Shown piece by piece: positions 11,675-26,463 of a stretch of DNA of 33,147 nucleotides. The position numbers and the translations under genes were made by a program. The DNA is taken from the NCBI GenBank assembly GCA_030690545.1, contig JAUYGN010000092.1:1-33147 (forward strand). Reading direction: 5' to 3'. The notes beneath the pieces are model-generated. The model was not told the DNA's origin and did not search any database. It was given only the letters and a program-made list of their open reading frames with translations. How positions within the stretch are numbered: the first letter of the stretch is position 1; each line of letters opens with the position of its first letter. Origin of the DNA: Solirubrobacteraceae bacterium. GTDB lineage: Bacteria; Actinomycetota; Thermoleophilia; Solirubrobacterales; Solirubrobacteraceae.

Positions 11675-11677
11675 GAG

Positions 11678-12811
11678 CTACCGCGTCCCCTCCGGCGCTT
11701 CCCAGCCGGCCGGCGTGCCGTGGCGCAGCCAGTCCCACAGCCCCGCCGCGACCGACGCCGTCGTCAGGACGTAGTAGCGCGCGACGAGCAGCGCACGCAG
11801 CGCCAGCAGCGGCGCGAGCGCGGCGCCGGCGAGCAGCGCGAGCTGCAGCGCCAGGGCGACGGCGTAGACGACGCTCGACGTCGCCAGCGCGATGCTCGCC
11901 GCGAGCGCCGCCAGATGCAGGAACGGCGCCGCGTAGCGCAGCACCCGATGGGAGGCCATCATCAGCGCGTAGAGCGGCGGGTAGCCGCGCGGCGACAGCA
12001 GCCCGCCGCGCAGGACGATCGGCCAGGCGTGGCTCATCATCCGCCGCTTGCGGGCGAACTCGCCCTCGATCGACGGCACCATCTTCTCCGTCGCGCGCGC
12101 CTGCGGGACGTAGACCGCGCGCCAGCCGCGCTTGACCATGTTGAACGGGAACGACAGGTCGTGGCCCATGATCGGGTCGACCTCGATGTACGCCGCACGG
12201 CGCGTCGCATAGATCGCGCCGTTGCCGGCGGTGACGGAGGCCAGCCGCGACTCCATCCTGCGCAGCGCCATCTCGTAGCGCCAGTACAGGCCCTCCTGGT
12301 TGGTCCCCCCGTCGTTGACGAAGCGCACCTGGCCGCAGGCGTAGCCGACCTTCGCGTCGGCGAACGCGCCGACGAGCTCGCGCAGCGCCTCGGGCTCCCA
12401 TGCGCTGTTGGCATCGGAGAACGCGACGACCTCTGCGCGCGAGCGCGCGACGGCCGCGTCCTGCGCGCGGATCTTGCCGCCACGCTCGAGCTCGAGCACG
12501 GCGTCAGCGCCCGCGCGGCGCGCCTCGAGCACCGTGCCATCGGCCGACCCGTCGCTCGCGACGACGACCTCCAGCAGCTCGCGCGGGTAGTCGAGCGCGA
12601 GCGCGTTGGCGACCTTGCGGGCGATCACCGCGCCCTCGTCGTAGGCCGCCACGATCAGGCTGACGGTCGGCAGATCGGCGGCGGCGGACGGCACGGCGGT
12701 CGGCCGCGAGCCGCGCAGGCGTGCGAGCGCGCCGAGCAGCAGCGGGTAGCCGAGCTGCGCGTAGGCGAGCAGCGACACGCAGAGCCAGAACGCGATCTCC
12801 CAGGCGAGCAC
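11678..12811 (-). CDS. Membrane-associated GT2 glycosyltransferase
   Basis: 377-residue glycosyltransferase family 2 protein. An N-terminal membrane helix (about 3-24) precedes the GT-A domain: SLIVAAYDEGAVIARKV, VVVASDGSADGT (nucleotide-binding Asp), AFSDANSAW (DxD-like), AGNGAIYATRR and DLSFPFNMVKRGWRAVYVPQA. The C-terminus has several transmembrane segments, as in processive polysaccharide synthases. A longer frame reaches 12943, but its first 44 residues are low-complexity. GTG 12811 is chosen because GAGAAT lies 6 nt upstream, matching the leaderless pattern, and because the membrane helix starts there. It forms a two-gene surface-glycan unit with the priming transferase just downstream. 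Confidence 0.88.
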   Translation of the reverse strand: MLAWEIAFWLCVSLLAYAQLGYPLLLGALARLRGSRPTAVPSAAADLPTVSLIVAAYDEGAVIARKVANALALDYPRELLEVVVASDGSADGTVLEARRAGADAVLELERGGKIRAQDAAVARSRAEVVAFSDANSAWEPEALRELVGAFADAKVGYACGQVRFVNDGGTNQEGLYWRYEMALRRMESRLASVTAGNGAIYATRRAAYIEVDPIMGHDLSFPFNMVKRGWRAVYVPQARATEKMVPSIEGEFARKRRMMSHAWPIVLRGGLLSPRGYPPLYALMMASHRVLRYAAPFLHLAALAASIALATSSVVYAVALALQLALLAGAALAPLLALRALLVARYYVLTTASVAAGLWDWLRHGTPAGWEAPEGTR

Positions 12812-12817
12812 GCCGCC

Positions 12818-12823
12818 ATTCTC
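12818..12823 (-). promoter_or_regulatory. -10-like hexamer, GT2 gene
   Basis: On the minus strand GAGAAT is six nt before GTG 12811. It keeps the conserved A2 and T6 of a -10 box. No Shine-Dalgarno is present. Confidence 0.4.
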
Positions 12824-12973
12824 GCGGAGAGCGCCGGCACGACGAGCGGCCGCGCCCGACGTCCCGCCTGCCGGCGGTCGCCGACCGGCGCGACGCAGCG
12901 ACGCACCGACATCCCGCGGCCCCAGCATCACCGCATCAGGCAAAGATCAACCAAACAACGACAACCGACGCAG

Positions 12974-13018
12974 GTGGGGCCACTTCAAGGCATCGAAGTG
13001 GGCCGGTGCAAGCCATCG
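12974..13018. repeat. Imperfect 21-22 bp direct repeats, possible IS21-type end
   Basis: Unit 1 (12974-12995) starts GTGGGGCCACTTC and ends AAGGCATCG. Unit 2 (12998-13018) starts GTGGGCCGGTGC and ends AAGCCATCG. The same stretch also forms CCACTTC/GAAGTGG (12980-12986 with 12995-13001). Repeated GTGGG(G)CC-type units are typical of IS21-family ends, where transposase binds multiple copies. No istA/istB gene is present, so this would be a leftover end. Confidence 0.4.
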
Positions 13019-13200
13019 TTTTCACACAGCTGAATGGTGCCGACACGCCGAGGTGATCACGCGCCTCGAGGCGCTCTGCGCGCGTGGGAGCGCCTGCGCC
13101 TGGACCCTGCGGCGGCATGTCGGTCTGGTCGCGCGATCGCGCCGACCACCCACGGCCGTGCTGCTGAGCCCAGCTGGCCCTTACCGTTGCCGGCGGGCTT

Positions 13201-13353
13201 GTTCGGTGGTGCGCGATGCCGATGAGCACCCTCCGCGAGACCTGCCGCCTACAAGGCCACCGCCTCCACGAATACCTCACCGCCGCGATCACCGCCGACC
13301 TCCACAGCCAGCCGATCCCCCGCTACCCGCCCAACCTGACCGGATACCCGTGA
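13201..13353 (+). pseudogene. Transposase C-terminal remnant (IS66-like)
   Basis: A short frame ending at TGA 13351-13353 reads MPMSTLRETCRLQGHRLHEY followed by LTAAITADLHSQPIP. This resembles the C-terminal tail of IS66-family transposases (S-x-L-x-T-C-x-x-Q-G-R-x(4)-Y-L-x-x-A-I, then a PxP segment). No catalytic domain, start or inverted repeat survives. It ends 31 bp before the ABC operon. Family assignment is from memory of the tail pattern and is tentative. Confidence 0.45.
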
Positions 13354-13384
13354 ACGGCTACACCCGAGCCACCGGAGAACACTC

Positions 13385-14152
13385 ATGAACGACGCCAATC
13401 CACCCGCGCTGTCCATCCGCGGACTGCACAAGACCTTCGGCCGGAAGGTCTCGGTCGACCATGTGGACCTGGAGGTCCCCCGCGGCTCCTTCTTCGGGCT
13501 GGTCGGCCCCAACGGAGCCGGCAAGACCACCCTGCTGTCGATGGCAGTCGGGCTACTGCGCCCCGATGCCGGAACCGCCGCGGTGCTGGGCACCGACGTG
13601 TGGAGCGACGGCCTGCGGGCCAAGACACACCTGGGCGTCCTACCCGACGGCCTGGCGATGCCGGAGTTCCTCACCGGCCGCGAGGTGCTCACCTTCCTCG
13701 GCCGGCTCCGGGGGCTCGACCCCGCGCTGGTGGATGCCCGCGCCCAGGAGCTGCTGGAGGTGATGGACCTGCTGGGGGCCGAGCAGACGCTCGTCGTGGA
13801 CTACTCCACCGGGATGCGCAAGAAGATCGGGCTGGCCACCACGCTGCTGCACAACCCGGAGGTGCTCGTGCTCGACGAGCCGTTCGAGGCCGTCGACCCG
13901 GTGTCGGCGCTGACCCTCAAGCGGATCCTGACCCGGTTCGTCTCCCTGGGCGGCTCGGTCGTGCTGTCCAGCCACGTGATGGCCCTGGTGGAGCAGCTGT
14001 GCGACACGGTCGCGGTCATGTCGGACGGGGTGGTGGTGGCTCGCGGGCCGGTGGCGCAGGTCCGCGGCGAGACCACCTTGGAGGAGACCTTCGTCACGCT
14101 GGTCGGCGCGGGAACCGGCACCGTGGAGGGGCTGTCGTGGTTGGGGACCTGA
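13385..14152 (+). CDS. ABC transporter ATP-binding protein
   Basis: 255-residue ATPase subunit with Walker A GPNGAGKT (41-48), a degenerate signature DYSTGMRKK (139-147), Walker B LVLDEP (161-166) and the switch His in SSHVMA (197). The Q-loop reads GVLPDGL, lacking the usual Gln, as in some drug or lantibiotic exporters of the CcmA/BcrA kind. GGAG at 13374-13377, seven nt before ATG 13385, is a proper Shine-Dalgarno, unlike most neighbours. The stop overlaps the permease start. Codon choice shifts from the ACG/GCG style of the surroundings to ACC/CTG/GTG, suggesting transfer from another actinobacterium. The substrate is unknown. Confidence 0.92.
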   Translation: MNDANPPALSIRGLHKTFGRKVSVDHVDLEVPRGSFFGLVGPNGAGKTTLLSMAVGLLRPDAGTAAVLGTDVWSDGLRAKTHLGVLPDGLAMPEFLTGREVLTFLGRLRGLDPALVDARAQELLEVMDLLGAEQTLVVDYSTGMRKKIGLATTLLHNPEVLVLDEPFEAVDPVSALTLKRILTRFVSLGGSVVLSSHVMALVEQLCDTVAVMSDGVVVARGPVAQVRGETTLEETFVTLVGAGTGTVEGLSWLGT

Positions 14153-16008
14153 TCGGTCTGAAGCTGGCGCTGACCCGCAACTCGATCACCGGTAGCCGGG
14201 CCGTGTGGGCCTGGACCGGGGCGAGCGTCGGCGTCGTGCTCGCCGCCGGCGCGGTGGTGCTGGCCGGTTGGCCGCTGCGGCCGGCCTCGCTCGTGCCGGA
14301 CCTGCTCGCCATCGCCTATCTCACCTGGCTCATCGGCTGGGTCGTCGGACCGGTGATGTCGCCGGCGCCGCCGCTGCGCCCGGCCCACCTGGCGATGCTC
14401 CCGATCCCCCGGCACCGGCTGGCCCTGGGGCTCCTGGTAGCCGGATTCGTGGGGCTCGCCACCGCGGTCACCGCGCTGCTGTTCACCAGCCTCATCGTGT
14501 ATGCCGCGCGCCTGGGCGTGGTGCCCGCGCTCCTCGCGGTCCCACTGGCCGCGCTCCAGGTGTCCCTCCTCGTGCTGGTGTCGCGGGTGGCGCACGTGGC
14601 CTTTGGTCGACTCGCCCGAGCGCGCGCCGGCGCCGCGCTCAACGGCATCGTGCTGGCGGTCGTGCTCGTGCTCAGCCAGTCCGGCTGGATGCTGCTGGTC
14701 GGGCTGCTGTCCTCCGGCGTCCTCGAAGAGGGCTTCCCCGACGGCTTCTCCTCCGCGCTGCGGTGGGTGCCGTCCGGGTGGGCCCTGGCCGCGGTGGAAG
14801 CCGCCGCGGCCGGTGCCTGGGCGACGGTGGTGCTCGTCGTCGCGGCGATGCTCGCGCTGGCGGCCGTGCTGCTCGTCCTGTGGGGCACCAGCCTGGGCGA
14901 GGCACGCGGCGCTCGCGCGGTGGTCCGTGGCTCCGTCGCGCGCGCGACACCCCGGAGGGCCCCGTTCGACCGGCCCGTCGGAGCCATCGTGGGCAAGGAG
15001 CTGCGCACCTGGTGGCGCGATCCGGCCCGCTCCGCCGCCCTGTCGGCGCCGCTCGCCTGGGGCGTGCTCACCGCGGTCCTGCCGCTGACCTTCGGAGCCG
15101 TCGAGCTGCTGCCATGGGCCGGAACGCTGATCGCGATCATGGCCGCCAGCTGGCTGGCGAACATGTACTCCTTCGACGGCACCGGCATCTGGCTCACCCT
15201 GCAGACCAGCACCGAACGCGTCGACGTGCGCGCCCGCCAGTCGGCCTACCTGCTCGTCTACGGCCCGATCGCGCTCCTGGTGACGATCGCGTTCACGGCC
15301 GCCAGCGGCCTGGGCTGGGCCTGGCCCTGGGCACTGGCCGCCGTCACCGCAGCGGTCGGCGGCGGCGCCGGCCTGGTCGCCTACAGCTCGGCGTTCATGC
15401 CCGCACCCGGACCGGACGTCCACGAACGGGCCGAGAACCCGGCCGAGGGAACGGAAGAGATCGGGTCGTCCTTCCTCGTGTTCTTCGCCGCTCTGGTGCC
15501 TCCGCTGCCCGGCCTGGGTGTCGTCTACCTCGGCACCCTGCGAGACAGCATGGCCCTGCAATGGGCCGGTGTCCTGGTCGGGATCCTCGTCGGCGCCCTC
15601 CTGGCCTGGGGCCTCGGCCGGCTGGCCGCCGCCAGACTGCAACGCACCGCCCCGGAGCTGCTGCTGCTGATGCGCTCCGGGCGCCCCGCATCGAGCACCG
15701 ACACCGGCGACGAGGAGCTGGAGCTGACGACGTGGGAGACCACCCTGATGACGGTCAGCTGGACCTTGGGCATCCTCGCCGTCATTCCCCAGGGACTCCT
15801 CACCATGCTGTTCAAGCTCACCGGCAACGACGACGTGCGGGTGTGGTTCCTCGCGATGTACCTGCCCGAGCCGTGGGGCTGGCTCACCAGCATCGGCATG
15901 GTGCTGCTCGGCGCCTACCTGATCTGGATCGCCTCCCGAGTGCTCAAACGGGCCGCCGCCAGAAGAACGCCGCAGGCCTCAGCACCCGAAAGGGAGAGGA
16001 CTCGGTGA
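14137..16008 (+). CDS. ABC transporter permease, large multi-TM
   Basis: 623-residue integral membrane protein with about 12 or more hydrophobic segments, partner of the ATPase just upstream. GTG 14137 overlaps the ATPase gene by 16 nt, and GGAGGGG (14125-14131) sits five nt before it, so translation is coupled. A cytoplasmic patch (FDRPVGAIVGKELRTWWRDP, about 278-297) is typical of ABC-2-type exporters just before a second membrane half. A second acidic linker lies near 505-530, with a basic tail. The permease belongs to no named family that I can recognise. It shares the atypical codon use of the ATPase gene. No substrate-binding protein or regulator is beside it, favouring an exporter. Confidence 0.85.
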   Translation: MVGDLIGLKLALTRNSITGSRAVWAWTGASVGVVLAAGAVVLAGWPLRPASLVPDLLAIAYLTWLIGWVVGPVMSPAPPLRPAHLAMLPIPRHRLALGLLVAGFVGLATAVTALLFTSLIVYAARLGVVPALLAVPLAALQVSLLVLVSRVAHVAFGRLARARAGAALNGIVLAVVLVLSQSGWMLLVGLLSSGVLEEGFPDGFSSALRWVPSGWALAAVEAAAAGAWATVVLVVAAMLALAAVLLVLWGTSLGEARGARAVVRGSVARATPRRAPFDRPVGAIVGKELRTWWRDPARSAALSAPLAWGVLTAVLPLTFGAVELLPWAGTLIAIMAASWLANMYSFDGTGIWLTLQTSTERVDVRARQSAYLLVYGPIALLVTIAFTAASGLGWAWPWALAAVTAAVGGGAGLVAYSSAFMPAPGPDVHERAENPAEGTEEIGSSFLVFFAALVPPLPGLGVVYLGTLRDSMALQWAGVLVGILVGALLAWGLGRLAAARLQRTAPELLLLMRSGRPASSTDTGDEELELTTWETTLMTVSWTLGILAVIPQGLLTMLFKLTGNDDVRVWFLAMYLPEPWGWLTSIGMVLLGAYLIWIASRVLKRAAARRTPQASAPERERTR

Positions 16009-16051
16009 TCGTGCGTCAGGCGATCACGACCGGCCTGCGGCGGCCGAACGG

Positions 16052-17149
16052 TCAGCGCAGCGCGCCGTAGAGCGCGAGGTGGCGAGCGGCGATCACGTCC
16101 CACGAGTAGGCGCCGGCGGCTGCCGCGCGGGCGCCGGCGGCGAGCCGCTCGCGAGCGGCGCCGTCGCCGAGCAGCCGCGTCAGCTCGCCCGCCAGCGCAT
16201 CCGCGTCGCCGGGCGCGACGAGCGCCGCCGCGCCGTGCGCCGCGACCTCGGCGAAGCCGCCGACGTCGCTCAGCAGCAGCGGCGCGCCGAACGCGAGTGC
16301 CGTGAAGAGCACGCCGGACTGGTCGATCTCGCGGTAGGGCAGGACGACGAGGTCGGCGCGGCGGAAGTACGCGCCGAGCTCGTCGTCGGCGACGAAGCGC
16401 GGCACCCAGCGCACGGACGGCGGCGCGCTCGCGCGCAGCGCCGCGATGTCCATCCGCGGCATGCCGACGATCCACAGCTCGGCGGCGGGCGCCGCCGCCC
16501 GCCAGGCATCGAGCAGGGCGTCGATCCCCTTGTACGGGCGCATGAGCCCGAAGCACAGGACGACGGGCCGCTCGACCGCCGCGAGCTCGTCCGGCAGCGA
16601 CCGCTCGCCGGGCACATGGGTCAGGTGCTGGAAGGCGCCGTGCGGGATGACGCTGACCTTCTCGGGAGCGATCCCGAGCGCGTCGACGAGCCGCGCGCGA
16701 CCGTGCTCGGAGTGCACGACGACCGCGTCGACGCGGTCGTAGAGGCGGCGCTGGGCGCTGAGCTGCCCGCGGCGCGGCTCGCGCGGCAGCACGTCGTGGG
16801 CGGTGAGCACGACCGGGCGCGCGGACGGCAGCAGCCGCACGTCGACCGGCTGGACGGTCAGCCACTGGAAGTGGACGACGTCGGCGGCATCGGCGGCGCG
16901 CCGGTAGGCGAGCATGTCGGGGCCGTGCTGGGCGAGCTTGGCCGCGAAGCGCGCGCGGGAGCCGGCGCGACCCGGCGTGCGGCGGTAGAAGCGCTCGACG
17001 CGCTCGTAGCCCTCCGCCGCGGGCACCGGCCCGTAGTCGAAGCGGCTCGTCTGCAGGCGAACCTCCGCGCCGGCGCGCGCGAGCGCGGCACACAGCGCGT
17101 GGTCGTAGGGCGGCGTGTAGGCCGAGGGGTCGACGACGTCCACGCGCAC
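16052..17149 (-). CDS. GT4 (GT-B fold) glycosyltransferase
   Basis: 365-residue retaining glycosyltransferase of family 4 type. N-terminal domain: DVVDPSAYTPPYDHALCAAL, VVHFQWLTVQ, LTAHDVLP, VVVHSEHGRARL, VIPHGAF. C-terminal nucleotide-sugar domain: VLCFGLMRPYKGIDALLDAW, LWIVGMPR, VVLPYREIDQSGVLFTALAFGAPLLLSDVGG with the conserved acidic/E-x7-E region degenerate (D-Q-S-G). It probably acts in the cytoplasm on a lipid-linked glycan. The longer frame begins at 17185, but GTG 17149 follows a -10 box TAGGCT by 7 nt and begins exactly at the first beta strand. It is divergent from the next glycosyltransferase. Confidence 0.88.
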   Translation of the reverse strand: MRVDVVDPSAYTPPYDHALCAALARAGAEVRLQTSRFDYGPVPAAEGYERVERFYRRTPGRAGSRARFAAKLAQHGPDMLAYRRAADAADVVHFQWLTVQPVDVRLLPSARPVVLTAHDVLPREPRRGQLSAQRRLYDRVDAVVVHSEHGRARLVDALGIAPEKVSVIPHGAFQHLTHVPGERSLPDELAAVERPVVLCFGLMRPYKGIDALLDAWRAAAPAAELWIVGMPRMDIAALRASAPPSVRWVPRFVADDELGAYFRRADLVVLPYREIDQSGVLFTALAFGAPLLLSDVGGFAEVAAHGAAALVAPGDADALAGELTRLLGDGAARERLAAGARAAAAGAYSWDVIAARHLALYGALR

Positions 17150-17156
17150 GGGGCTG

Positions 17157-17162
17157 AGCCTA
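17157..17162 (-). promoter_or_regulatory. -10 hexamer, GT4 gene
   Basis: TAGGCT on the minus strand, seven nt before GTG 17149 and with no Shine-Dalgarno. It would be inside the coding region if the longer start at 17185 were used, which argues for 17149. Confidence 0.5.
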
Positions 17163-17234
17163 GAGGCCCGGGCGATCGCGCCCAAGCCGCGCGAGGAGGA
17201 GCCCTGTCGCGTTCCTGTCGGCGGGCTCAGGCGG

Positions 17235-17291
17235 TCAACGCAGCAGCAGGTCGTTCATCTTCTCAGCTGGGGTCTTCCAGCCGAGTGGTTG
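17235..17291 (-). pseudogene. IS30-like transposase C-terminal scrap
   Basis: The minus strand reads QPLGWKTPAEKMNDLLLR followed by a stop. This is the characteristic end of IS30-family (and related DDE) transposases, where RPRKxLGWxTPAE precedes the last helix. Upstream sequence does not continue the similarity, so only the last ~18 codons remain. It lies in the gap between two divergent glycosyltransferases and marks a past insertion. Confidence 0.65.
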
Positions 17292-17345
17292 GCGGCCGGC
17301 CCGCGAGGCCCTTGCCCGCGCCGGCCGCGGCCGCGGTCCGTGGCG

Positions 17346-17351
17346 TAACGT
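17346..17351 (+). promoter_or_regulatory. -10 hexamer, GT2 rhamnosyltransferase-like gene
   Basis: TAACGT six nt before ATG 17358, without a Shine-Dalgarno; leaderless pattern. Confidence 0.5.
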
Positions 17352-17357
17352 GGACCG

Positions 17358-18293
17358 ATGGCCGTCGAGGTCTCCTACTGCGTCGTGAACACCGCGGGCC
17401 GCGAGCTGCTGCTGCGCTGCCTCGACGCGATCGCCGCCGAGCAGGAGACGCTGGGCTTCGCGACCGAGGTGCTCGTGCTCGACAACGCCTCGGGCGACGG
17501 CTCGGCCGGCGCCGCGCGGCGCCATCCCGCGACGAGCGAGCTGATCGCGCTCGACCGCCGGCGCGGCAAGGGGGAGAACGACTCCGAGCTGCTGCAGCGC
17601 GCGCGCGGGCGCCTGTGCCTGCTGCTCAACGAGGACTCCGAGCTGCTGCTCGGCGCCACGAAGGCCCTGCGCGCCGCGCTCGACCAGCGCCCCGACGCGG
17701 CCGCGGCGGGCGCCAGGCTCGTGCGCCCCGACGGCCGTCAGCAGCCCTCCGCGTGGCGCTTTCCGACGCCGCTGACGGCGCTCGTCGGCGCGCTGTTCCT
17801 GCACCGCCGCTACACCGTCCAGAGCCGCGGCGAGCACGTCCGCGAGGTCGACTGGGCGCAGTCCGCGGCGCTGCTCGTCCGCCGCGACGCCGCCGAGCAG
17901 ATCGGCTGGCTCGATCCCGCGTTCTTCGTCTACTCCGACGAGGTCGACTTCTGCAAGCGCCTGCGCGACGCCGGCTGGCGCACGCTCTACGTCCCGCAGG
18001 CGACCGCGATCCACCACGAGCAGCTCTCGACCGGTCCGGTGCCCGAGCGGCGCATCGTCGAGCTGTCGCGCAATCGCGACCGCTACATGCGCAAGCACCA
18101 CGCGTGGCCCGCCGCCTGGGCCGTGCGGCTGCTGACCGCGTTGACGTACGCGGCGCGCGCGCTCGCCGCCGTCGCGCTGCCCGGTCACGACCCGCGGCGC
18201 TACTGGCGCCACGTGACCGCGACGCTGCGCCCCGCGCGCGGCGAGGGCCTGCGCGAGGCGGCATCCGAGCACAACCGCGGCACGCGGCTGTAG
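17358..18293 (+). CDS. GT2 glycosyltransferase (rhamnosyltransferase-like)
   Basis: 311-residue inverting family 2 glycosyltransferase of the WbbL/RfbF-like type. Visible are EVSYCVVNTAGRELLLRCL, VLVLDNASGDGS (nucleotide-binding Asp), LLLNEDSELL (the DxD equivalent, E-D-S), a variable middle ending DWAQSAALLVRRDAAEQIGWLDPAFFVYSDEVDFCKRL with the catalytic-base acidic residues, and GWRTLYVPQATAIHH. The C-terminal helix may lie on the membrane. The closest described relatives add rhamnose to cell-wall or capsular glycans; the donor here is inferred only. The gene is divergent from the GT4 gene, and its 3' side is followed by 172 bp with no gene I can support. Confidence 0.88.
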   Translation: MAVEVSYCVVNTAGRELLLRCLDAIAAEQETLGFATEVLVLDNASGDGSAGAARRHPATSELIALDRRRGKGENDSELLQRARGRLCLLLNEDSELLLGATKALRAALDQRPDAAAAGARLVRPDGRQQPSAWRFPTPLTALVGALFLHRRYTVQSRGEHVREVDWAQSAALLVRRDAAEQIGWLDPAFFVYSDEVDFCKRLRDAGWRTLYVPQATAIHHEQLSTGPVPERRIVELSRNRDRYMRKHHAWPAAWAVRLLTALTYAARALAAVALPGHDPRRYWRHVTATLRPARGEGLREAASEHNRGTRL

Positions 18294-18465: not shown

Positions 18466-20187
18466 ATGGCGACCACTCCCGCCGACGGCAGCACCACGAC
18501 GACGTCTGCGTCCACGTCCGCCGAGGCCGCGCCCGTCCGCGAGCGCCGGCCGGCGATCGTCGCCGTCGACGACGAGCCCGCGGTCCTCGCCGCGGTCGCG
18601 CGCGACCTGCGCCGCGGCTTCGGCGAGCGCTTCCGGATCATGCGCGCGAGCTCGGGACCCGAGGGTCTGGACCTGCTCAAGCAGCTGCGCGCCCGCGGCG
18701 ACCAGGTCGCGATGCTGATCGCCGACCAGCGGATGCCGGCGATGTCCGGCACCGAGTACCTCGTGCAGGCACGCACGCTCGTGCCCGACGCCAAGCGCGT
18801 GCTGCTGACCGCCTACGCCGACACCGAGGCGGCGATCGCGGCGATCAACGAGGTCGCGCTGGACTACTACCTGCTCAAGCCCTGGGACCCACCCGAGGAG
18901 CAGCTCTTCCCGGTCGTCGAGGACCTCCTGACGACGTGGGAGTCCGGCGCGGCGCTGGAGGCCGGCGGCGTGCGGATCGTCGGCCACCGCTTCTCGAAGG
19001 ACACGCACGACCTGCGCGACTTCCTCGCGCGCAACCGCGTGCCGGCGCGCTGGCTCGACGTCGAGCGCGACGGCGAGGCGCGCGAGCTGCTGACCGTCGC
19101 CGGCGTCAGCGCCGAGGGGCTGCCCGTCGCGCTGCTCGAGGACGGCTCCGTGCTCGAGCGCCCGACGGTGCTCGAGCTCGCCGAGCGGCTCGGCGTCGCC
19201 GGGCAGCCGGCGCAGGACCACTACGACCTCGTCGTCGTCGGTGGCGGCCCGGCCGGGCTCGGCGCCGCCGTCTACGGCGCCTCGGAGGGGCTGCGCACGA
19301 TCATGGTCGAGCGCGAGGCGCCCGGTGGCCAGGCCGGGCAGTCGAGCCGGATCGAGAACTACCTCGGCTTCCCGGCGGGCCTCAGCGGCTCGGACCTCGC
19401 GCGCCGCGCGACCGACCAGGCGCGCCGGCTCGGCGCCGAGCTGCTGACGGTGCAGGACGCCGTCGGGCTGCGCGCCGAGGGCGCCGGGCGCTTCGTGGCG
19501 CTCAGCGGCGGCGGCGTCCTGAGCGCCAACTGCGTGATCATCGCCTCGGGCGTGTCGTACCGGCAGATGACCGCTCCCGGCTTCAGCGAGCTGACGGGCA
19601 CCGGGATCTACTACGGCGCGGCGATGACCGAGGCGCGCTCGTGCTCCGAGCAGCACGTCGTCGTGATCGGCGGCGCGAACTCCGCCGGCCAGGCCGCCGT
19701 GCACTTCAGCGGCTACGCGCGCCAGGTGACGATGCTCGTCCGCGGTCCGTCGCTGGAGGCGTCGATGTCGCACTACCTGATCGAGCAGCTCGCCGAGCTG
19801 CCGAACGTCGAGGTGCGCACCGGCAGCTCGGCGATCGCGGCGCACGGCGCGGACGGGCGGCTGGGACATCTGCGCGTCGCGAGCACGGCCGGCGGCGAGT
19901 ACGACCTCGACGTCGACGCGTGCTTCGTCTTCATCGGCGCCTCGCCGCACACCGACTGGCTCGAGGGCGTCGTCGCGCGCGACGCGCACGGCTTCCTGCT
20001 CGCCGGCCCCGACGTCCGCGACGCCGGCTGGCCGCTGAAGCGCGACCCGTACCTGCTCGAGACGAGCGTGCCCGGCGTCTTCGTCGCCGGCGACGTCCGC
20101 GCGCGCTCGATCAAGCGCGTCGCCAGCGCCGTCGGCGAGGGCTCGATGGCGGTCTCGCTCGTCCACCAGTACCTCGTCGAGGCATGA
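18466..20187 (+). CDS. Response regulator fused to thioredoxin-reductase-like flavoprotein
   Basis: 573 residues in three parts. A receiver domain (about 28-155) has the acidic pair Asp35-Asp36, phospho-acceptor Asp87 (IADQRMP), Thr115 and Lys138 (LLKPWDPP, the style of REC domains in cyclic-nucleotide/RpfG-like regulators). A thioredoxin/glutaredoxin-like linker follows (about 168-245) without CxxC. An FAD/NAD(P) reductase (252-573) has GGGPAG (259-264), GGANSAGQAA (402-411) and GVFVAGD (537-543). The TrxR disulfide CxxC is missing; only Cys393 (EARSCSEQ) lies near that position. It probably senses or controls redox under phosphorylation control. It starts the operon; its stop overlaps the kinase ATG (ATGA). 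Cytoplasmic. The architecture exists in databases; its function is not established to my knowledge. Confidence 0.92.
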   Translation: MATTPADGSTTTTSASTSAEAAPVRERRPAIVAVDDEPAVLAAVARDLRRGFGERFRIMRASSGPEGLDLLKQLRARGDQVAMLIADQRMPAMSGTEYLVQARTLVPDAKRVLLTAYADTEAAIAAINEVALDYYLLKPWDPPEEQLFPVVEDLLTTWESGAALEAGGVRIVGHRFSKDTHDLRDFLARNRVPARWLDVERDGEARELLTVAGVSAEGLPVALLEDGSVLERPTVLELAERLGVAGQPAQDHYDLVVVGGGPAGLGAAVYGASEGLRTIMVEREAPGGQAGQSSRIENYLGFPAGLSGSDLARRATDQARRLGAELLTVQDAVGLRAEGAGRFVALSGGGVLSANCVIIASGVSYRQMTAPGFSELTGTGIYYGAAMTEARSCSEQHVVVIGGANSAGQAAVHFSGYARQVTMLVRGPSLEASMSHYLIEQLAELPNVEVRTGSSAIAAHGADGRLGHLRVASTAGGEYDLDVDACFVFIGASPHTDWLEGVVARDAHGFLLAGPDVRDAGWPLKRDPYLLETSVPGVFVAGDVRARSIKRVASAVGEGSMAVSLVHQYLVEA

Positions 20188-21584
20188 CCGCCGCGGTCAC
20201 CGTCGCCGACCTGCGTCCCGTCGACCTCTTCGACGGGATCGACGACGCGCAGCTCGCCGAATGGACGGCGCACGCGACGGTGCGCGACGCCGAGCCCGGC
20301 GAGGCGATCATCGCCCAGGGCGAGCACGTGCCCGGCGTCATCCTCCTGCTCGAGGGCACGGCGCTGACGCAGATGGCCAACCGCGGGCAGATCGAGCCCG
20401 TCGGCCACCAGCGCGCGCCGACCTGGATCGGCGCGATCTCCGTGCTGACCGGCGACCCGCTGCCGGTCAGCATCGTCGCCGAGTCCGTCTGCCACATGGC
20501 GATCGTCGCGCCGGAGGAGTTCCGCAGGCTGATCTTCGCCCAGCCGGCCGTCCACCAGACGGTCATGCGCCGCGTCGCCCCGGTCATGCAGCGCCTCGGC
20601 GGGATCGAGCAGAGCCACGAGCGGCTCGCCGCGCTCGGCACGATGGCAGCCGGGCTCGCGCACGAGCTCAACAACCCGGCCGCGGCGTCGCGGCGCGCCG
20701 CGTCGGCGCTGCGCGAGGAGGTCGAGGTCGTGCAGTCGACGCTCGTGAAGTTCGTCAGGTCCGGCGTCGAGCGCGCCGACGCCGAGCAGCTCGTCGACCT
20801 GCAGCAGGAGGCGATCGCGCGCGCGGCGACGGCGACGGCGCTCGACGCGCTCGACGCCGCCGATGCCGAGGACGAGCTGCTCGAGCGCCTCGAGGCGCTC
20901 GGCGTCGCCGAGCCGTGGCGGCTCGCCGAGCCGCTCGCGACGGCCGGCGTCGACGAGGACTGGCTCGATCGCGTCGCCGCGGTCGCCGGCCCGGCGACCG
21001 GGCCGGCGCTGCGCTGGGTCGCCGCGACGCTGACGATCGGTCGCGTCTCGGGCGAGCTGTGCGAGTCGACCGACCGCATCTCGGCGCTCGTCGGCGCCGT
21101 CAAGAGCTACGCGTACATGGACCGCGGCGGGCTCGTCGAGGTCGACCTGCACGAGGGCCTGGAGACGACGCTGACGGTGCTCGGCCACAAGCTCAAGCAC
21201 ACGGCGATCGAGGTCGAGCGCGACTACGACCGCGCGCTGCCGCGCACGATGGTGCGCGGCTCGGAGCTCAACCAGGTCTGGACGAACCTGCTCGACAACG
21301 CGATCGGCGCGCTCGGCGAGCGGGGCACGATCACGCTGACGACGCGGCGCGACGGCGACGGCGCCGTGATCGAGGTCTCCGACGACGGCCCCGGCATCCC
21401 GGACGACATCAGCGAGCGGATCTTCGAGCCGTTCTTCACGACGAAGGACGTCGGCGCCGGCACCGGCCTCGGCCTCTCGACCGCGCGGCAGATCGTCGTC
21501 GAGCGCCACGACGGCTCGCTGACCGCCCGATCCGAACCTGGCCGCACGACCTTTCGCGTGCGACTGCCGATCACACAGACCTGA
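20184..21584 (+). CDS. Soluble histidine kinase with cNMP-binding-like sensor domain
   Basis: 466 residues without membrane segments. Residues 10-125 form a cyclic-nucleotide-binding-like beta barrel (PGEAIIAQGEHVPGVILLLEGTA). The kinase H-box is LAHELNNP with His160. A roughly 115-residue Ala/Glu-rich helical insertion follows (about 180-295), and the second dimerisation helix seems to resume at RISALVGAVKSYAYMD (298-313). The ATPase domain has N-box NLLDNAIGAL (368-377), G1 DDGPGIP (400-406), F-box FEPFF (414-418) and G2 GTGLGLS (426-432). It overlaps the upstream gene by four nt (ATGA), so it is almost certainly the cognate kinase for that REC domain. The phosphate-binding Arg-Ala cassette typical of true cAMP sensors is not evident, so the ligand is open. 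Confidence 0.92.
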   Translation: MTAAVTVADLRPVDLFDGIDDAQLAEWTAHATVRDAEPGEAIIAQGEHVPGVILLLEGTALTQMANRGQIEPVGHQRAPTWIGAISVLTGDPLPVSIVAESVCHMAIVAPEEFRRLIFAQPAVHQTVMRRVAPVMQRLGGIEQSHERLAALGTMAAGLAHELNNPAAASRRAASALREEVEVVQSTLVKFVRSGVERADAEQLVDLQQEAIARAATATALDALDAADAEDELLERLEALGVAEPWRLAEPLATAGVDEDWLDRVAAVAGPATGPALRWVAATLTIGRVSGELCESTDRISALVGAVKSYAYMDRGGLVEVDLHEGLETTLTVLGHKLKHTAIEVERDYDRALPRTMVRGSELNQVWTNLLDNAIGALGERGTITLTTRRDGDGAVIEVSDDGPGIPDDISERIFEPFFTTKDVGAGTGLGLSTARQIVVERHDGSLTARSEPGRTTFRVRLPITQT

Positions 21585-21592
21585 GGACACCC

Positions 21593-21597
21593 GGAGG
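21593..21597 (+). promoter_or_regulatory. Shine-Dalgarno of the UBP zinc finger gene
   Basis: GGAGG four nt before ATG 21602, inside the 17-nt gap after the kinase stop. It shows independent ribosome loading within the operon. Confidence 0.75.
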
Positions 21598-21601
21598 CGC
21601 C

Positions 21602-21919
21602 ATGGCACGCTGCACCCATCTCGACGCGGTCACGATCACCGAGCTGCCCGACGCAGCGGAGGGCTGCGTCGACTGCCTCGTCACCGGCGACCCGTGGTGC
21701 CACCTGCGGATCTGCCTGACGTGCGGCCACGTCGGCTGCTGCGACGACTCGCCGAACCGCCACGCGACCGCGCACGCGAGCGCCAGCGGCCATCCGCTGA
21801 TCCGCTCGATCCAGCCCGGCGAGGACTGGTCGTGGTGCTTCGTCGACGAGGTCGCGCTGCGGATCGCGGCCGTCAGCGGATCGCCGCGGGTCCCGCCGTC
21901 GCCGATGGGCTGCCCATGA
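21602..21919 (+). CDS. UBP-type zinc finger protein
   Basis: 105-residue protein consisting of one ZnF_UBP domain (PF02148). Its Cys/His set is CTH (residue 4-6), GCVDCL, CHLRICLTCGHVGCC, then NRHATAHASASGHPL. In eukaryotes this fold binds the free C-terminus of ubiquitin. In bacteria stand-alone copies occur without ubiquitin and have no settled role. Here it is the third gene of the redox/histidine kinase operon, 17 nt after the kinase, with its own GGAGG. It may recognise a C-terminal peptide or act as a zinc/redox-responsive partner. The assignment is firm for the fold, open for function. Confidence 0.88.
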   Translation: MARCTHLDAVTITELPDAAEGCVDCLVTGDPWCHLRICLTCGHVGCCDDSPNRHATAHASASGHPLIRSIQPGEDWSWCFVDEVALRIAAVSGSPRVPPSPMGCP

Positions 21920-21935
21920 GGCGGACTTCGCCTCA
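21917..21935 (+). terminator. Short hairpin at the operon end
   Basis: TGAGGCG/CGCCTCA (21917-21923 with 21929-21935), a perfect 7-bp stem with a GACTT loop, begins at the stop codon of the zinc finger gene. It is a plausible terminator, though short and without a U-tract. Confidence 0.45.
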
Positions 21936-22013: not shown

Positions 22014-22724
22014 TCAGCCCGCGCGCGCCGCCGCCAGCCACGCCGCGAGGCTGGGAAGCCCGTCGATCGCCTCGGGCGCCGGCGGCCGGGCCAGCGTATG
22101 AGCGACCGCGCGCAGGCTGTTGCTGACCTGGCGGCGCACATCCTCCTGGCTGATCCCCACCTGCGCTGCGACCGCAGCGGTGGGATGGCCCTCGACGACG
22201 CACAGGCGAACGATCTCGCGCGTGCCCTCGGGCAGCAGCGCAAGCCGCCGCGCGACCTCGCTGCGCAGCGCGGGCAGGCCGGCGAGCACGTCGAGGCCGA
22301 CGATCTCCTCGGCCGCGGGCACGGGTGGGCAGAGGCCGAGTCGGCGCAGCGCGCGACTCTCCGTGCGACCCGTCGCGCGAAACCGGGCGAGCTGCCGGTA
22401 GGCCATCGCGTCCAGCCACCCGACCGCCTCGCTGCTCGTCCGCAGGCGCCGCGCGGCGAGGTGCGCATGCGCGACCGTCTCGGCCCACAGCGCGATCCCC
22501 GCCTCGGCCTCGAGCGCGCGGCGCACGAAGAACGTCAGCAGGACGAGGGCGTGCCCGTCCAGCGCGGTGTGCACCGCGCTACCGGCGGACGCCCGCGCTC
22601 CGCGCAGCGCACGCTCGTCGTCACCGTCGATCGCGGCATCGCAGCTCGGGCAGCGGGCGACCGTGCTGTGCGTCGCGACGGCGTGAAACCGCAGCTCGCA
22701 CGCCTCGCACGAGACGTACGGCAT
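22014..22724 (-). CDS. ECF-type sigma factor with N-terminal zinc ribbon
   Basis: 236 residues from ATG 22724. Residues 6-28 hold a four-Cys zinc ribbon (C6xxC9, C25xxC28). A region resembling sigma region 2 follows (FFVRRALEAEAGIALWAETV and AVGWLDAMAYRQLARFR). Sigma region 4, a helix-turn-helix, is near the end: LPEGTREIVRLCVVEGHPTAAVAAQVGISQEDVRRQVSNSL. It would direct RNA polymerase to a small regulon. Zinc ribbons are common in anti-sigma factors (ZAS) but unusual fused to the sigma itself, suggesting built-in redox or metal sensing. A longer frame reaches 23111, but it overlaps the divergent lipoprotein promoter and is low-complexity. No anti-sigma gene is adjacent. Confidence 0.78.
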   Translation of the reverse strand: MPYVSCEACELRFHAVATHSTVARCPSCDAAIDGDDERALRGARASAGSAVHTALDGHALVLLTFFVRRALEAEAGIALWAETVAHAHLAARRLRTSSEAVGWLDAMAYRQLARFRATGRTESRALRRLGLCPPVPAAEEIVGLDVLAGLPALRSEVARRLALLPEGTREIVRLCVVEGHPTAAVAAQVGISQEDVRRQVSNSLRAVAHTLARPPAPEAIDGLPSLAAWLAAARAG

Positions 22725-22784
22725 CGTCAGCGCCCACCGGTCGCATACGTGCTCACACCTGTTAAGTGCCGCGGAGCCGACCGC

Positions 22785-22822
22785 TGTGACGCGGATCATC
22801 CGCTCGCGGCGCTTGTGACGCG
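22785..22822. repeat. 9-bp direct repeat in the sigma/lipoprotein divergent gap
   Basis: TGTGACGCG occurs at 22785-22793 and 22814-22822, 29 bp apart start to start (about three helical turns), in the 175-bp gap between the divergent sigma and lipoprotein genes. Possible regulator-binding sites. Confidence 0.35.
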
Positions 22823-22887
22823 CGGAGAGGCGTGCAGCGGCCGCGGGGAGACCGGCGTCGCGCGGCCGACAGGAGGATGACGAGCGA

Positions 22888-22893
22888 TACGCT
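22888..22893 (+). promoter_or_regulatory. -10 hexamer, lipoprotein gene
   Basis: TACGCT six nt before GTG 22900, with no Shine-Dalgarno in that short interval; leaderless pattern. Confidence 0.5.
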
Positions 22894-22899
22894 CCGCGC

Positions 22900-23904
22900 G
22901 TGCCCCTCCCACGCGTCGTCGTCGCTGCCGTCGCCGCGCTCCTCCTGACGGGCTGCGGCGCAAGCTCCGGCGACACGTCGCGGGCTCCGCTCGCCGCATC
23001 CTCGGCGGAGCTTCGCGAGCAGCTCAAGGGCGCGACGCAGTCCAGCGCGGCGGACTTCCCGGCCACGGCCGGCCGCACGCTGCAGGCCGTCGCCGATGCG
23101 ATCAACGTCACCGGGCCGCAGGTCGCGCTCGCCGGGACGCTCTACACGCCGGGCGAGAACCGGCTCGCCTTCGGCGTCATCGACGAGCAGACCGGCTTCG
23201 TCTACGGCAAGACCGCCGTGTATGTCGCCGACGGCCCCGACGCCAGGGCGCGCGGCCCGTTCCCGGCGCCCGCCGACCTGCTGATCACCGATCCGGCGTT
23301 CCGCAGCCAGACCGCGGCCGGCGAGGACGATCCGTTCGCCGCGGTCTACGAGGCCCAGGTCCCGTTCCCGCGCACGGGCAAGCAGTCGATCCTCGTCGTC
23401 ACGCAGGTCCGGGGGCGGCTCGTCGCCGCTCCAGCCGCGCTGACGGTCACCGCCGCGAGTCGCGACCCGGTCCCGCGTCCCGGCGCGCGACCGCCGTCGA
23501 TCAACACCGACACGGTCGCCTCGGCCAGCGGCAACGTCGAGGCGATCGAGACGCGCATCCCGCCCGACGACATGCACGGCGTCGACTTCGCCGACGTGAT
23601 CGGCAAGCGCCCGGTCGCCCTGCTGTTCGCGACGCCAGCCCTCTGCGCGTCGCGTGTCTGCGGCCCCGTCGTCGACATCGCGCTGCAGCTCAAGGCGACC
23701 TACGGCAACCGGATGGAGTTCATCCACCAGGAGGTCTACGTCGACAACGATCCCAAGAAGGGGCTGCGGCCGCCGCTGCGCGCCTTCGGCCTACCGACCG
23801 AGCCGTGGCTGTTCGTCTTCGACGAGGACGGCCGCACCACCGCGCGCCTGGAAGGCTCGTTCGGCTTCAACGCCTTCGAGCGCGCGATCAAGAGCGCCCT
23901 CTAA
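22900..23904 (+). CDS. Lipoprotein with thioredoxin-like C-terminal domain
   Basis: 334-residue secreted lipoprotein. The signal peptide ends in a lipobox LLTGC (Cys19). Residues 60-190 form a beta-rich, substrate-like domain (LAFGVIDEQTGFVYGKTAVYV). Residues 220-334 look like a thioredoxin fold: GKRPVALLFATPALCASRVCGPVVDIA, then QEVYVDNDP, a cis-Pro-like PTEPWLFVFDEDGR and a final helix. The Cys pair is C249-x4-C254 instead of CxxC, so it may not be a standard dithiol oxidoreductase. It is divergent from the zinc-ribbon sigma factor, suggesting joint control. Its TAA stop overlaps the TAG of the convergent flippase gene (CTAA). Confidence 0.82.
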   Translation: MPLPRVVVAAVAALLLTGCGASSGDTSRAPLAASSAELREQLKGATQSSAADFPATAGRTLQAVADAINVTGPQVALAGTLYTPGENRLAFGVIDEQTGFVYGKTAVYVADGPDARARGPFPAPADLLITDPAFRSQTAAGEDDPFAAVYEAQVPFPRTGKQSILVVTQVRGRLVAAPAALTVTAASRDPVPRPGARPPSINTDTVASASGNVEAIETRIPPDDMHGVDFADVIGKRPVALLFATPALCASRVCGPVVDIALQLKATYGNRMEFIHQEVYVDNDPKKGLRPPLRAFGLPTEPWLFVFDEDGRTTARLEGSFGFNAFERAIKSAL

Positions 23905-25355
23905 CGCGCCTTGCGCGGCCGCCGGCTCGACCACAGGCGCCGCAGGGCGGCGAGCTCCTCGGGGCGCGCGAAGCGGGTGACGACGAACAGCGCCGGCAGC
24001 AGCGCCAGCGCGCCGGCCCGCAGCGCGAACCCGGCCGCGCCGCCGTCGGGCGCCAGCAGCTCGCCGGCGACGACGACCCCGGCCAGCAGCGCGACCGCGT
24101 GCGCCAGCCGCCCCCATTCGAACGGCACCGTGAACAGCCGCCGGGTCAGGAAGTGCAGGACGACGAGCATCACGGCGTAGGCGAGGACGAGCGCGATCCC
24201 GGCGCCCGCGATGCCGAGCGGCTCGACGAGCACGACGAGCGCGACGACGTTCACGACGACGCCCGCCAGCGCGGCGGGGAAGTTGCGCGTCGTCACGCCG
24301 GCGCGGCCGCCGATCGTGACGACGAGCAGGAACAGGCCGTACATCGACCAGCCGAGCGCGACCCACGGCAGCGCCTCGTGCGCCTCGAAGTACTCCGGCG
24401 CGGCGAGCAGTCGCACGAGCCAGCGCCCGAGCAGCGCCAGGCCGGCGACGACGAAGCCGGTCGCGACGACGTACCAGGTCGTCACCGCCGCGTAGAAGCG
24501 CCCGGCCTGACGGTCGTCGCCGATCGAGTACGCCAGCGGCGGCCAGGCGAGCTGGAAGGCGCGCACGGCGAGGATGACCGCCGTCGCGAGCTTGACCGAC
24601 AGCGCGAACAGGCCGGCCGCCGCCGCGCTCTGCGTGCGCAGCAGGTAGGCGCGGTCGATCACGTGCAGCGCGAAGACGGTCGCCTCGGCGGGAACGGTCG
24701 GCACGCCGAAGGCGAGCAGCGGCCCGAGCCGCATCTGCGGCCGCAGGCCGATCCGGCCGCGCAGCAGCCACCACAGCCCGGCCAGCACGACGACCGACGC
24801 GAGGTAGTTGCCGGCCAGATAGCCGCGCGCGCCGCCGTCGAGCACGACGACGAGCGTCACCGTCAGCGTGACGGTCAGCACGACGTTGCACAGCGACGCG
24901 GCGACGTACGCGCGCCGGCGCTCCTCCACGCGCAGCAGCGCGTAGGCGATCTCGAGGTTCGTGAAGGCCCACAGCCCGACGACCGCGATCCGCATCAGCC
25001 CCGCGTCCTCGAAGCCGAGCAGCAGCCTGCTCAGCGGCCCCGCCAGCAGCATCGCCAGCAGCCCGGCGAGCGTCGTCGTCAGCAGCACCGTCGCGGTCGT
25101 CGTGCGCGCGAGGCGGTCGCGGTCCTCCTCCGGCGTCTGGAAGTGGAAGCGCACGAACGCCTCGCCGAGTCCGAAGCGCAGCAGGATCGAGGCCAGGATG
25201 ATGAACGTCAGCAGCGTCTCGGCGATGCCGAAGTCCGCCCGGCTGAGCGCACGGGTGTAGAGCGGCAGCGTGACGAGCGCGAGCACCGCCGACAGCAGGC
25301 TGGCCGCCTGGTAGGCGGCGCCGCCGGCCAGCAGACGAGCGAACAGGCCGCGCAT
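23901..25355 (-). CDS. Polysaccharide flippase (Wzx/MOP-type)
   Basis: 484-residue protein with about 12-14 transmembrane segments of the oligosaccharide flippase group (MOP superfamily). It opens with GGAAYQAASLLSAVLALVTLPLYTRALSRADFGIAETL, the conserved first-helix text ending in Y/F-G. It should flip undecaprenyl-linked repeat units across the inner membrane. Start ATG 25355 is divergent from the next glycosyltransferase with a 70-bp shared gap. The 3' end overlaps the lipoprotein stop by four nt. The polymerase/ligase candidate is nearby at 28431. Confidence 0.9.
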   Translation of the reverse strand: MRGLFARLLAGGAAYQAASLLSAVLALVTLPLYTRALSRADFGIAETLLTFIILASILLRFGLGEAFVRFHFQTPEEDRDRLARTTTATVLLTTTLAGLLAMLLAGPLSRLLLGFEDAGLMRIAVVGLWAFTNLEIAYALLRVEERRRAYVAASLCNVVLTVTLTVTLVVVLDGGARGYLAGNYLASVVVLAGLWWLLRGRIGLRPQMRLGPLLAFGVPTVPAEATVFALHVIDRAYLLRTQSAAAAGLFALSVKLATAVILAVRAFQLAWPPLAYSIGDDRQAGRFYAAVTTWYVVATGFVVAGLALLGRWLVRLLAAPEYFEAHEALPWVALGWSMYGLFLLVVTIGGRAGVTTRNFPAALAGVVVNVVALVVLVEPLGIAGAGIALVLAYAVMLVVLHFLTRRLFTVPFEWGRLAHAVALLAGVVVAGELLAPDGGAAGFALRAGALALLPALFVVTRFARPEELAALRRLWSSRRPRKAR

Positions 25356-25413
25356 CGCTAGCCGTCCGCTGCGCGACGGCCGGTGGTTTTCAGACAGCCC
25401 ACGCGCGCCACGC

Positions 25414-25419
25414 TACTGT
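25414..25419 (+). promoter_or_regulatory. -10 hexamer, glycosyltransferase gene
   Basis: TACTGT six nt before GTG 25426 with no Shine-Dalgarno; leaderless pattern. Confidence 0.5.
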
Positions 25420-25425
25420 CCGCCC

Positions 25426-26463
25426 GTGCCGGATCCGCGTGCCCTCCTGCTCCTGCCGCGACCGCTGGAGGGGTTCATCCTCGCCGACCAGGCCCGCGAT
25501 CTGCTGCGCGCCGACGGCGTCGTCGCCGCCGATCCGCCGCGGATTCCGTACGGCGCGGTGGCGCGATTGCCCACGGCGCTGCGCGATCGCGTGGCCGGCA
25601 CGACGGCCCGCCGGCTGCTGCGCGCGCTGGACGGCGACCTGCGCGCGGTCGCGATCTTCCATCCCGTGCAATGGCCGCTGGCGCGCGCGCTGCTCGCCGC
25701 GCGCCCCGCCGCCGAGCTCTGGTACGGGCGCTGGGATCGCTACGAGGCCGCCTACGACGCGTCGCCGCCGATGCGCGCCCGGCTCGCCGCGCTGCACGAG
25801 CAGGCCGCCGCGCGCTCGGCGCTGACGTTCGTCGCCTCGGGCAAGCTCGCCGAGCTCGAGCGCGCGGCCGGTCGCGAGGCGCAGGTCGTCGGCCTGGCGG
25901 CCGACTCCTTCCCGGCGCCCGATCCGGGCAGCGCCGTGATCGCCGTCTCGCTCGGCCATCTCGGGTGGCGCACCGACTGGGCGCTGCTGCGCGCGGTCGC
26001 CGAGCGGATGCCCGAGCTCGTGCTGCTGCTCGTCGGCGCCTGGCACGACGACGAGTGCGCAGGCGACGCCGACTTCGCCTGGTGCCGCAGCGCCCCCAAC
26101 CTCGTCTGGCTGGGCCGGCGCTCCGACGACGAGGCGGCACGGCTGATCCTCTGCGCCGACGTCGGGATCCTGCCGTTCCGCGTCGAGCCCTTCAACGACG
26201 CCGCGCTGCCCTACCGGATCCTCAAGTACGCGTGCCTCGGGCGGCGGACGATCTCACCCGAGCTCGCCGGCGTGCACACCTGGGGACGCGCCGTGACGAC
26301 CGTACCCGACGCCGACGCCTTCGTCGCGGCGCTGCGCGCGCAGGCCGGCGCGCGGCTGGCTCCCGACGCGGCGCTGCGCGCGTGGGCGCTCGAGCAGACC
26401 GCCGAGCGCGTCAACGCGCCGCTGTGGGAGCGGCTGCGCGCGCTGGGCATCGCCTCGCGCTGA
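25426..26463 (+). CDS. Glycosyltransferase (GT-B type)
   Basis: 345-residue protein with two Rossmann-like halves. The N-terminal half has ALLLLPRPLEGFI, VAIFHPVQWPLA and YGRWDRYEAAY. The C-terminal half has VIAVSLGHLGWRTDWALL, LVLLLVGAWHDDE, NLVWLGRRSDDEAARLILCADVGILPFRVEPFNDAALPYRILKYACLGRRTIS. The last stretch is the usual donor-binding segment of GT1/GT4-like enzymes (DVGILPF..N....P.K..EY..). It is probably cytoplasmic and works on the same surface glycan as its neighbours. GTG 25426 is supported by the -10 TACTGT. It converges on the septum-formation gene with an 8-bp gap. Confidence 0.8.
   Translation: MPDPRALLLLPRPLEGFILADQARDLLRADGVVAADPPRIPYGAVARLPTALRDRVAGTTARRLLRALDGDLRAVAIFHPVQWPLARALLAARPAAELWYGRWDRYEAAYDASPPMRARLAALHEQAAARSALTFVASGKLAELERAAGREAQVVGLAADSFPAPDPGSAVIAVSLGHLGWRTDWALLRAVAERMPELVLLLVGAWHDDECAGDADFAWCRSAPNLVWLGRRSDDEAARLILCADVGILPFRVEPFNDAALPYRILKYACLGRRTISPELAGVHTWGRAVTTVPDADAFVAALRAQAGARLAPDAALRAWALEQTAERVNAPLWERLRALGIASR

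What the first reader, a model, noticed from the sequence alone, without database searches (positions are those of the whole stretch)
18466..21919. Three-gene redox/histidine-kinase/UBP-zinc-finger module
REC-flavoprotein fusion, cNMP-sensor histidine kinase and UBP zinc finger are packed with a 4-nt overlap and a 17-nt gap, and end in a hairpin. The two signalling proteins have matched kinase and receiver halves, while the output is a flavin redox enzyme rather than a DNA-binding domain. The zinc finger has no obvious partner other than these. This looks like a complete signalling system in which a small ligand, phosphorylation and flavin redox state are joined. I know of the fused regulator family but not of a described function for the set.
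Basis: partly seen in the sequence, partly recalled or inferred. Interest (0 to 1): 0.68.

Follow-up and report, generated by a model that had tools for sequence, protein, structure and literature searches.

The report
Kinase-controlled flavoprotein operon with zinc finger
Three adjacent bacterial genes form a real, widely conserved stress-signalling unit in which a histidine kinase is predicted to switch a flavin enzyme that resembles thioredoxin reductase but has lost its catalytic cysteines; the arrangement is already recognised in databases, but nobody has shown what it does.

Summary
Three same-strand ORFs (18466-20187, 20184-21584, 21602-21919) have a 4-nt overlap and a 17-nt gap. A 7-bp hairpin starts at the last stop but has no T-run. 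The first two genes are a conserved pair: the kinase lies in the same fetched stretch in 69 of 80 species loci and in 20 of 20 family loci, across at least seven phyla. The zinc-finger gene is optional (24/80; 11/20).

Corrections:
- The flavoprotein is receiver + glutaredoxin fold + thioredoxin-reductase fold, but both active-site cysteine pairs are gone, so it is not a thioredoxin reductase.
- The 'cNMP sensor' lacks the phosphate-binding Glu and Arg, as do about 98% of its relatives, so a cyclic-nucleotide ligand is not supported.
- The zinc finger has other partners. It is fused or adjacent to Na+/H+ antiporters and to receiver-less flavoproteins carrying a CRP-like domain, and the residue at the ubiquitin-binding Arg is Asp.

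Receivers lacking the phosphorylation site never had a kinase nearby (0 of 23), though this is essentially two clades. Published data show the Streptomyces gene SCO7298 induced by acid shock and sulfane sulfur. The regulator class ('TrxB') is catalogued, and I recall a 2011 analysis describing such a zinc-finger redox system. It is a new member of a known, experimentally uncharacterised kind.

The parts
18466..20187 (+). Response regulator fused to a TrxR-like flavoprotein (573 aa): REC ~28-160 (Asp87), glutaredoxin-fold domain without CxxC ~165-246, TrxR-like FAD/NAD(P) domain without CxxC ~250-573, single conserved Cys393
18547..18945 (+). Receiver domain with intact DD/D87/T115/K138 phosphorylation site
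18958..19203 (+). Glutaredoxin/mycoredoxin-fold linker domain; GHR(W/F)S in place of the CxxC region, cis-Pro-like P220 kept
   Evidence: model pLDDT 86.6; Foldseek best hit Mrx1 2lqo; alignment A2
20184..21584 (+). Histidine kinase (466 aa): degenerate CRP/cNMP-like N-terminal domain, H160 box AHELNNP, about 110-residue insertion before the second DHp-like motif, intact HATPase_c
21602..21919 (+). Small zf-UBP protein (105 aa); conserved Cys/His Zn-ligand pattern, Asp48 at the ubiquitin-binding Arg position
21917..21935 (+). 7-bp hairpin starting at the last stop codon; no T-run, so at most a weak or convergent-gene terminator

Best explanation
A cytosolic two-component system with an enzyme as output. 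Shown here: conserved linkage, intact kinase and receiver residues, fold assignments, and loss of the redox dithiols. Inferred: the CRP-like domain senses an intracellular condition, probably linked to acid or oxidative/sulfur stress and probably not canonical cAMP/cGMP; His160 autophosphorylates and passes phosphate to Asp87; phosphorylation changes how the receiver packs on the Grx/TrxR body and so turns the flavoprotein on or off. Without CxxC, the flavoprotein would move hydride from NAD(P)H to FAD and then to a non-disulfide acceptor, perhaps through the single conserved Cys393, or would report NAD(P)H/FAD redox state through protein contacts. The UBP zinc finger is most likely a small adaptor that binds the flavoprotein and links it to partners such as cation/proton antiporters.
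For: Kinase in the same stretch in 69/80 species loci and 20/20 family loci; all 16 Actinomycetota genomes with a close regulator have the kinase, and 3 of the other 133 do (p = 8e-19). His160 103/103. Receivers with an intact D/T/K site: 96 of 107 have a kinase within 5 kb; proteins with a degenerate receiver or none: 0 of 23. CRP-like domain fused directly to the same Grx-TrxR body, with zf-UBP beside it, in receiver-less relatives (L098, L143, L144). No CxxC at the TrxR site and a single conserved Cys393. zf-UBP linkage changes about 10 times on the flavoprotein tree. SCO7298, listed as a TrxB-type regulator paired with kinase SCO7297 (PMC9739842), is strongly upregulated by acid shock (PMC2631018) and induced by sulfane sulfur (PMC9952706). 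zf-UBP fused or adjacent to Na+/H+ exchangers.
Against: The receiver/kinase correlation is essentially two clades, and the independent-pair test is not significant. The zinc finger is absent near about 70% of regulators. No biochemistry exists in the papers found. The acid-stress link rests on expression in Streptomyces and on guilt by association. Genome size was not controlled in the co-occurrence test.
Confidence: 0.55

Rival explanations
1. Cyclic-nucleotide-dependent redox signalling: the kinase's N-terminal domain binds cAMP or cGMP and the flavoprotein acts as a thioredoxin/disulfide reductase, as the family annotations suggest.
For: PF00027 match above cutoff; TRX_reduct is the best NCBIfam model, though below its cutoff (194 vs 343 bits); the cNMP-like domain recurs in fused relatives.
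Against: The cassette Glu and Arg are replaced (GAISVLTGDPLPVSI against GE...PRAA of PKA); the strict motif is found in 2/100 kinases and 0/4 fused flavoproteins; both CxxC motifs are absent.
Confidence: 0.12
2. The flavoprotein is a catalytically dead sensor or scaffold: FAD/NAD(P)H binding is read out as a conformational signal that feeds back on the kinase or on an unlinked target.
For: Loss of all dithiols with extreme conservation of FAD-side motifs; degenerate-receiver relatives persist without a kinase.
Against: The FAD and NAD(P) GxGxxG-type motifs and the near-flavin region are strongly conserved, which argues for retained catalysis.
Confidence: 0.25
3. The zinc finger is a separate pH or antiporter accessory gene that often lands beside this two-component system without acting in it.
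For: Fused or adjacent to Na_H_Exchanger proteins in several genomes; absent near about 70% of regulators.
Against: Recurrent linkage in separate clades, including receiver-less flavoproteins (about 10 changes on the tree); genome-level association p = 8e-12.
Confidence: 0.25

Closest known systems
'TrxB' class of response regulators; SCO7298/SCO7297 of Streptomyces coelicolor; [quoted passage not shown]
   Same: Same REC-TrxR fusion with a kinase beside it; catalogued in PMC9739842, PMC9953108 and PMC5847659
   Different: Those surveys list the class only; they do not mention the Grx-fold domain, the missing dithiols or the zinc finger in the passages read
Bacterial ZF-UBP redox system of Burroughs, Iyer & Aravind 2011 (Mol BioSyst 7:2261)
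   Same: From memory, its abstract says bacterial ZF-UBP domains belong to a 'novel cyclic nucleotide-dependent redox signaling system', which looks like this gene set
   Different: The text is not held (title confirmed through a citation); the cyclic-nucleotide part is not supported by the cassette residues here
Thioredoxin reductase / AhpF
   Same: Fold (Z about 31-36 over about 300 residues) and FAD/NAD(P) motifs; AhpF also carries an N-terminal thioredoxin-fold part
   Different: No CxxC in either part; HRRxxxR reduced to VRGxSL
zf-UBP protein solved as PDB 2IDA ('Hypothetical protein'; Rhodopseudomonas palustris RPA1320 by my recollection)
   Same: E = 1e-30 over 86 residues
   Different: Solved structure with no assigned function

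Membership tests
Two-component system | Kinase phospho-His with intact HATPase_c | tested here: met
   His160 103/103, NNP box and GTGLGL conserved; HATPase_c 95 bits
Two-component system | Receiver acidic pair, Asp, Thr/Ser, Lys | tested here: met
   DD/D87/T115/K138
Two-component system | Phosphotransfer between the pair | not testable with these tools
   Needs a biochemical assay
Thioredoxin reductase | Redox-active CxxC in the NAD(P) domain | tested here: not met
   YCAVC of TrxR aligns with YYGAAMT; single conserved Cys393 in the family
Thioredoxin reductase | TrxR fold with FAD and NAD(P) dinucleotide motifs | tested here: met
Thioredoxin reductase | HRRxxxR-type NADPH 2'-phosphate motif | tested here: not met
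   VRGxSLxxSMS in the family, aligned to the HRR region; the motif definition is from general knowledge
Glutaredoxin/mycoredoxin | Grx fold | tested here: met
   pLDDT 86.6; best hit 2lqo Mrx1, E = 1.8e-4, then Grx/NrdH-type proteins
Glutaredoxin/mycoredoxin | CxxC or CxxS active site | tested here: not met
   GHRFSKDTHDLRDF in the window protein, no conserved Cys there in the family
cNMP-binding sensor | Phosphate-binding cassette GE...R[TSA]A | tested here: not met
   the motif test was checked on textbook cassettes (4 of 5 positive)
zf-UBP | Conserved Zn-ligand Cys/His | tested here: met
   C22, C25, C38, C41, C46, H54, H58, H64 at 97-100% in the alignment of 70 relatives
zf-UBP (ubiquitin-binding type) | Arg for the ubiquitin C-terminus (GR motif) | tested here: not met
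   Asp48 in 96% of relatives; USP16 has GR at that place
ZF-UBP cyclic-nucleotide redox system (Burroughs 2011) | zf-UBP genes linked to a TrxR-like flavoprotein and CRP-like domains | tested here: met
   the definition is recalled, not read

The most novel reading that the evidence does not exclude
A response regulator whose phosphorylation gates a dithiol-free flavin/NAD(P)H module, with a non-ubiquitin UBP zinc finger passing that state to cation/proton antiporters. This would be a phospho-controlled coupling of cell redox to cell pH, with a nucleoside-like or other non-cNMP ligand on the kinase.
Probability: 0.15. Interest if true: 0.65.

Novelty: new member of a known kind. Interest (0 to 1): 0.4.

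Why it matters
Response regulators with redox-enzyme outputs are catalogued but, as far as the held literature shows, have no proven activity. This module spans at least seven phyla and is extremely conserved. Its pieces make three clear predictions: no thioredoxin reductase activity, no cyclic-nucleotide binding, and no ubiquitin binding. Each of these contradicts the database names and is directly testable.

Tried and rejected
A classical terminator at the 3' end was not found. A fourth conserved neighbour was not found: recurrent clusters were alternative frames, generic families or Streptomyces synteny. Taking the receiver/kinase correlation as independent evidence was rejected after the tree showed two clades. 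Papers on the named fusion with a zinc finger: none held; the 2011 paper is not held. The fold search of the full model tested only residues 249-573, so the Grx domain was folded alone. The viral-contig search for the zinc finger gave three loci with no module found around them.

Full report
Observation. The three ORFs are real and at the stated places: 18466-20187, 20184-21584 and 21602-21919, all on the + strand, with a 4-nt ATGA overlap and a 17-nt gap holding a GGAGG sequence. Pfam gives Response_reg plus Pyr_redox_2, cNMP_binding plus HATPase_c, and zf-UBP. The hairpin at 21917-21935 exists, but no T-run follows and the terminator scan finds nothing. The window lies in a 3.5-Mb, 149-contig assembly. 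Its closest named relatives are Solirubrobacterales, Patulibacter, Conexibacter and Solirubrobacter.

Is it more than chance? In 80 species loci picked by the flavoprotein alone, the kinase lies in the same fetched stretch in 69, on the same strand in 66, and the zinc finger in 24. In 20 close relatives of the same family it is 20/20 and 11/20. In 149 Actinomycetota genomes, all 16 with a close regulator carry the kinase, against 3 of 133 others (p = 8e-19). A zf-UBP gene occurs in 19 of 24 genomes with any flavoprotein of this kind, against 12 of 125 others (p = 8e-12; genome size not controlled). Carriers include Actinomycetota, Cyanobacteriota, Chloroflexota, Deinococcota, Acidobacteriota, Bacteroidota and Pseudomonadota. 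A Streptomyces record shows the same three genes, annotated FAD-dependent oxidoreductase, ATP-binding protein and UBP-type zinc finger, overlapping by 4 nt each. Some loci carry two or three tandem kinases (L010, L044, L167).

The flavoprotein. It has three parts: receiver, a roughly 80-residue domain, and a TrxR-like body. The middle domain, folded alone (pLDDT 86.6), matches glutaredoxin-like proteins, best Mrx1 of Mycobacterium, but carries GHR(W/F)S where the CxxC should be. The TrxR body matches thioredoxin reductases at Z of about 31-36, but its CxxC is replaced (YCAVC against YYGAAMT). More than 100 columns are invariant at about 50-60% identity. The only cysteine conserved in the family is Cys393 (77/81). 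So it is not a thioredoxin reductase, although that is the best NCBIfam model (194 bits, cutoff 343).

The kinase. His160 and the AHELNNP box are invariant or nearly so in 103 sequences, and the ATPase motifs are conserved. A long stretch separates the H box from the next conserved helix, and HisKA scores below its cutoff. The N-terminal domain is of the CRP/PKA kind, but the phosphate-binding Glu and Arg are absent: GAISVLTGDPLPVSI aligns with GE...PRAA of PKA subunits. Only 2 of 100 relatives match the strict cassette, a pattern that recovered 4 of 5 textbook cassettes. A cyclic nucleotide is therefore unlikely, and another small ligand is open. The best solved relative is the Euglena PKA regulatory subunit; from general knowledge some of its relatives bind nucleosides, which is only a lead.

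The zinc finger. The Zn-ligand pattern is conserved, but the arginine that USP-type domains use for the ubiquitin C-terminus is Asp48 in 96% of relatives. The same domain is fused to, or sits next to, Na+/H+ exchangers in other genomes. It also stands beside flavoproteins that carry a CRP-like domain instead of a receiver (L098, L143, L144). The recurrent link to the flavoprotein, with or without kinase, suggests that the flavoprotein is its partner here.

A natural experiment. Of 130 distinct flavoproteins, 107 have an intact D/T/K receiver and 96 of these have a kinase within 5 kb. Most of the remaining 11 are cyanobacterial, and at least one is cut by a contig end. Of 23 with a degenerate receiver or none, zero have a kinase nearby (p = 1e-17). 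The degenerate-receiver clade has also lost Cys393 (0 of 18). On the tree this is essentially two clades, so it is suggestive and not independent proof.

Function. Published expression data concern SCO7298 of Streptomyces coelicolor, listed as a TrxB-type regulator paired with kinase SCO7297 (PMC9739842). It is strongly upregulated by acid shock (PMC2631018) and induced by sulfane sulfur (PMC9952706). In the latter paper the authors treat it as thioredoxin reductase trxB3, but in the passage read they overexpressed other genes to test H2S release. With the antiporter links of the zinc finger, acid or redox stress is the best guess for the input and physiology. I infer a phosphorylation-gated NAD(P)H/FAD module with a small zinc adaptor (confidence about 0.55).

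Known or new. [quoted passage not shown] From memory, Burroughs, Iyer and Aravind (2011) described bacterial ZF-UBP domains as part of a cyclic nucleotide-dependent redox signalling system; I could not read it, and only its title is confirmed through a citation. The window is a new member of that known kind.

Noticed in passing
L106, L108, L111, L112, L115, L089, L116: The same zf-UBP domain is fused to or adjacent to Na+/H+ exchangers in other Actinomycetota.
   Followed up: partly
L172, L177-L179, L186-L200: A clade of flavoproteins keeps a receiver-shaped domain that mostly lacks the phosphorylation site, and has lost both the neighbouring kinase and Cys393.
   Followed up: partly
L010, L044, L167: Two or three tandem copies of the kinase follow one flavoprotein gene.
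   Followed up: no
window 20600-21100: The kinase has about 110 residues between the H-box helix and the next conserved helix motif, with a conserved D.ED...WL pattern, unlike standard HisKA.
   Followed up: no
L090, L092: A standalone zf-UBP gene sits divergent to a patatin-like phospholipase gene in two genomes; a CRP-family regulator lies nearby in L090.
   Followed up: no
window 11084-18293 and 23901-26463: The module lies among glycosyltransferase, polysaccharide-transport-like and ABC-permease-like genes with no evident link to it.
   Followed up: no
window 22014-23111 (-): Convergent ORF with sigma-70 region 4, probably an unusual ECF-type sigma factor with a zinc-ribbon-like CxxC...CxxC start.
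   Followed up: no
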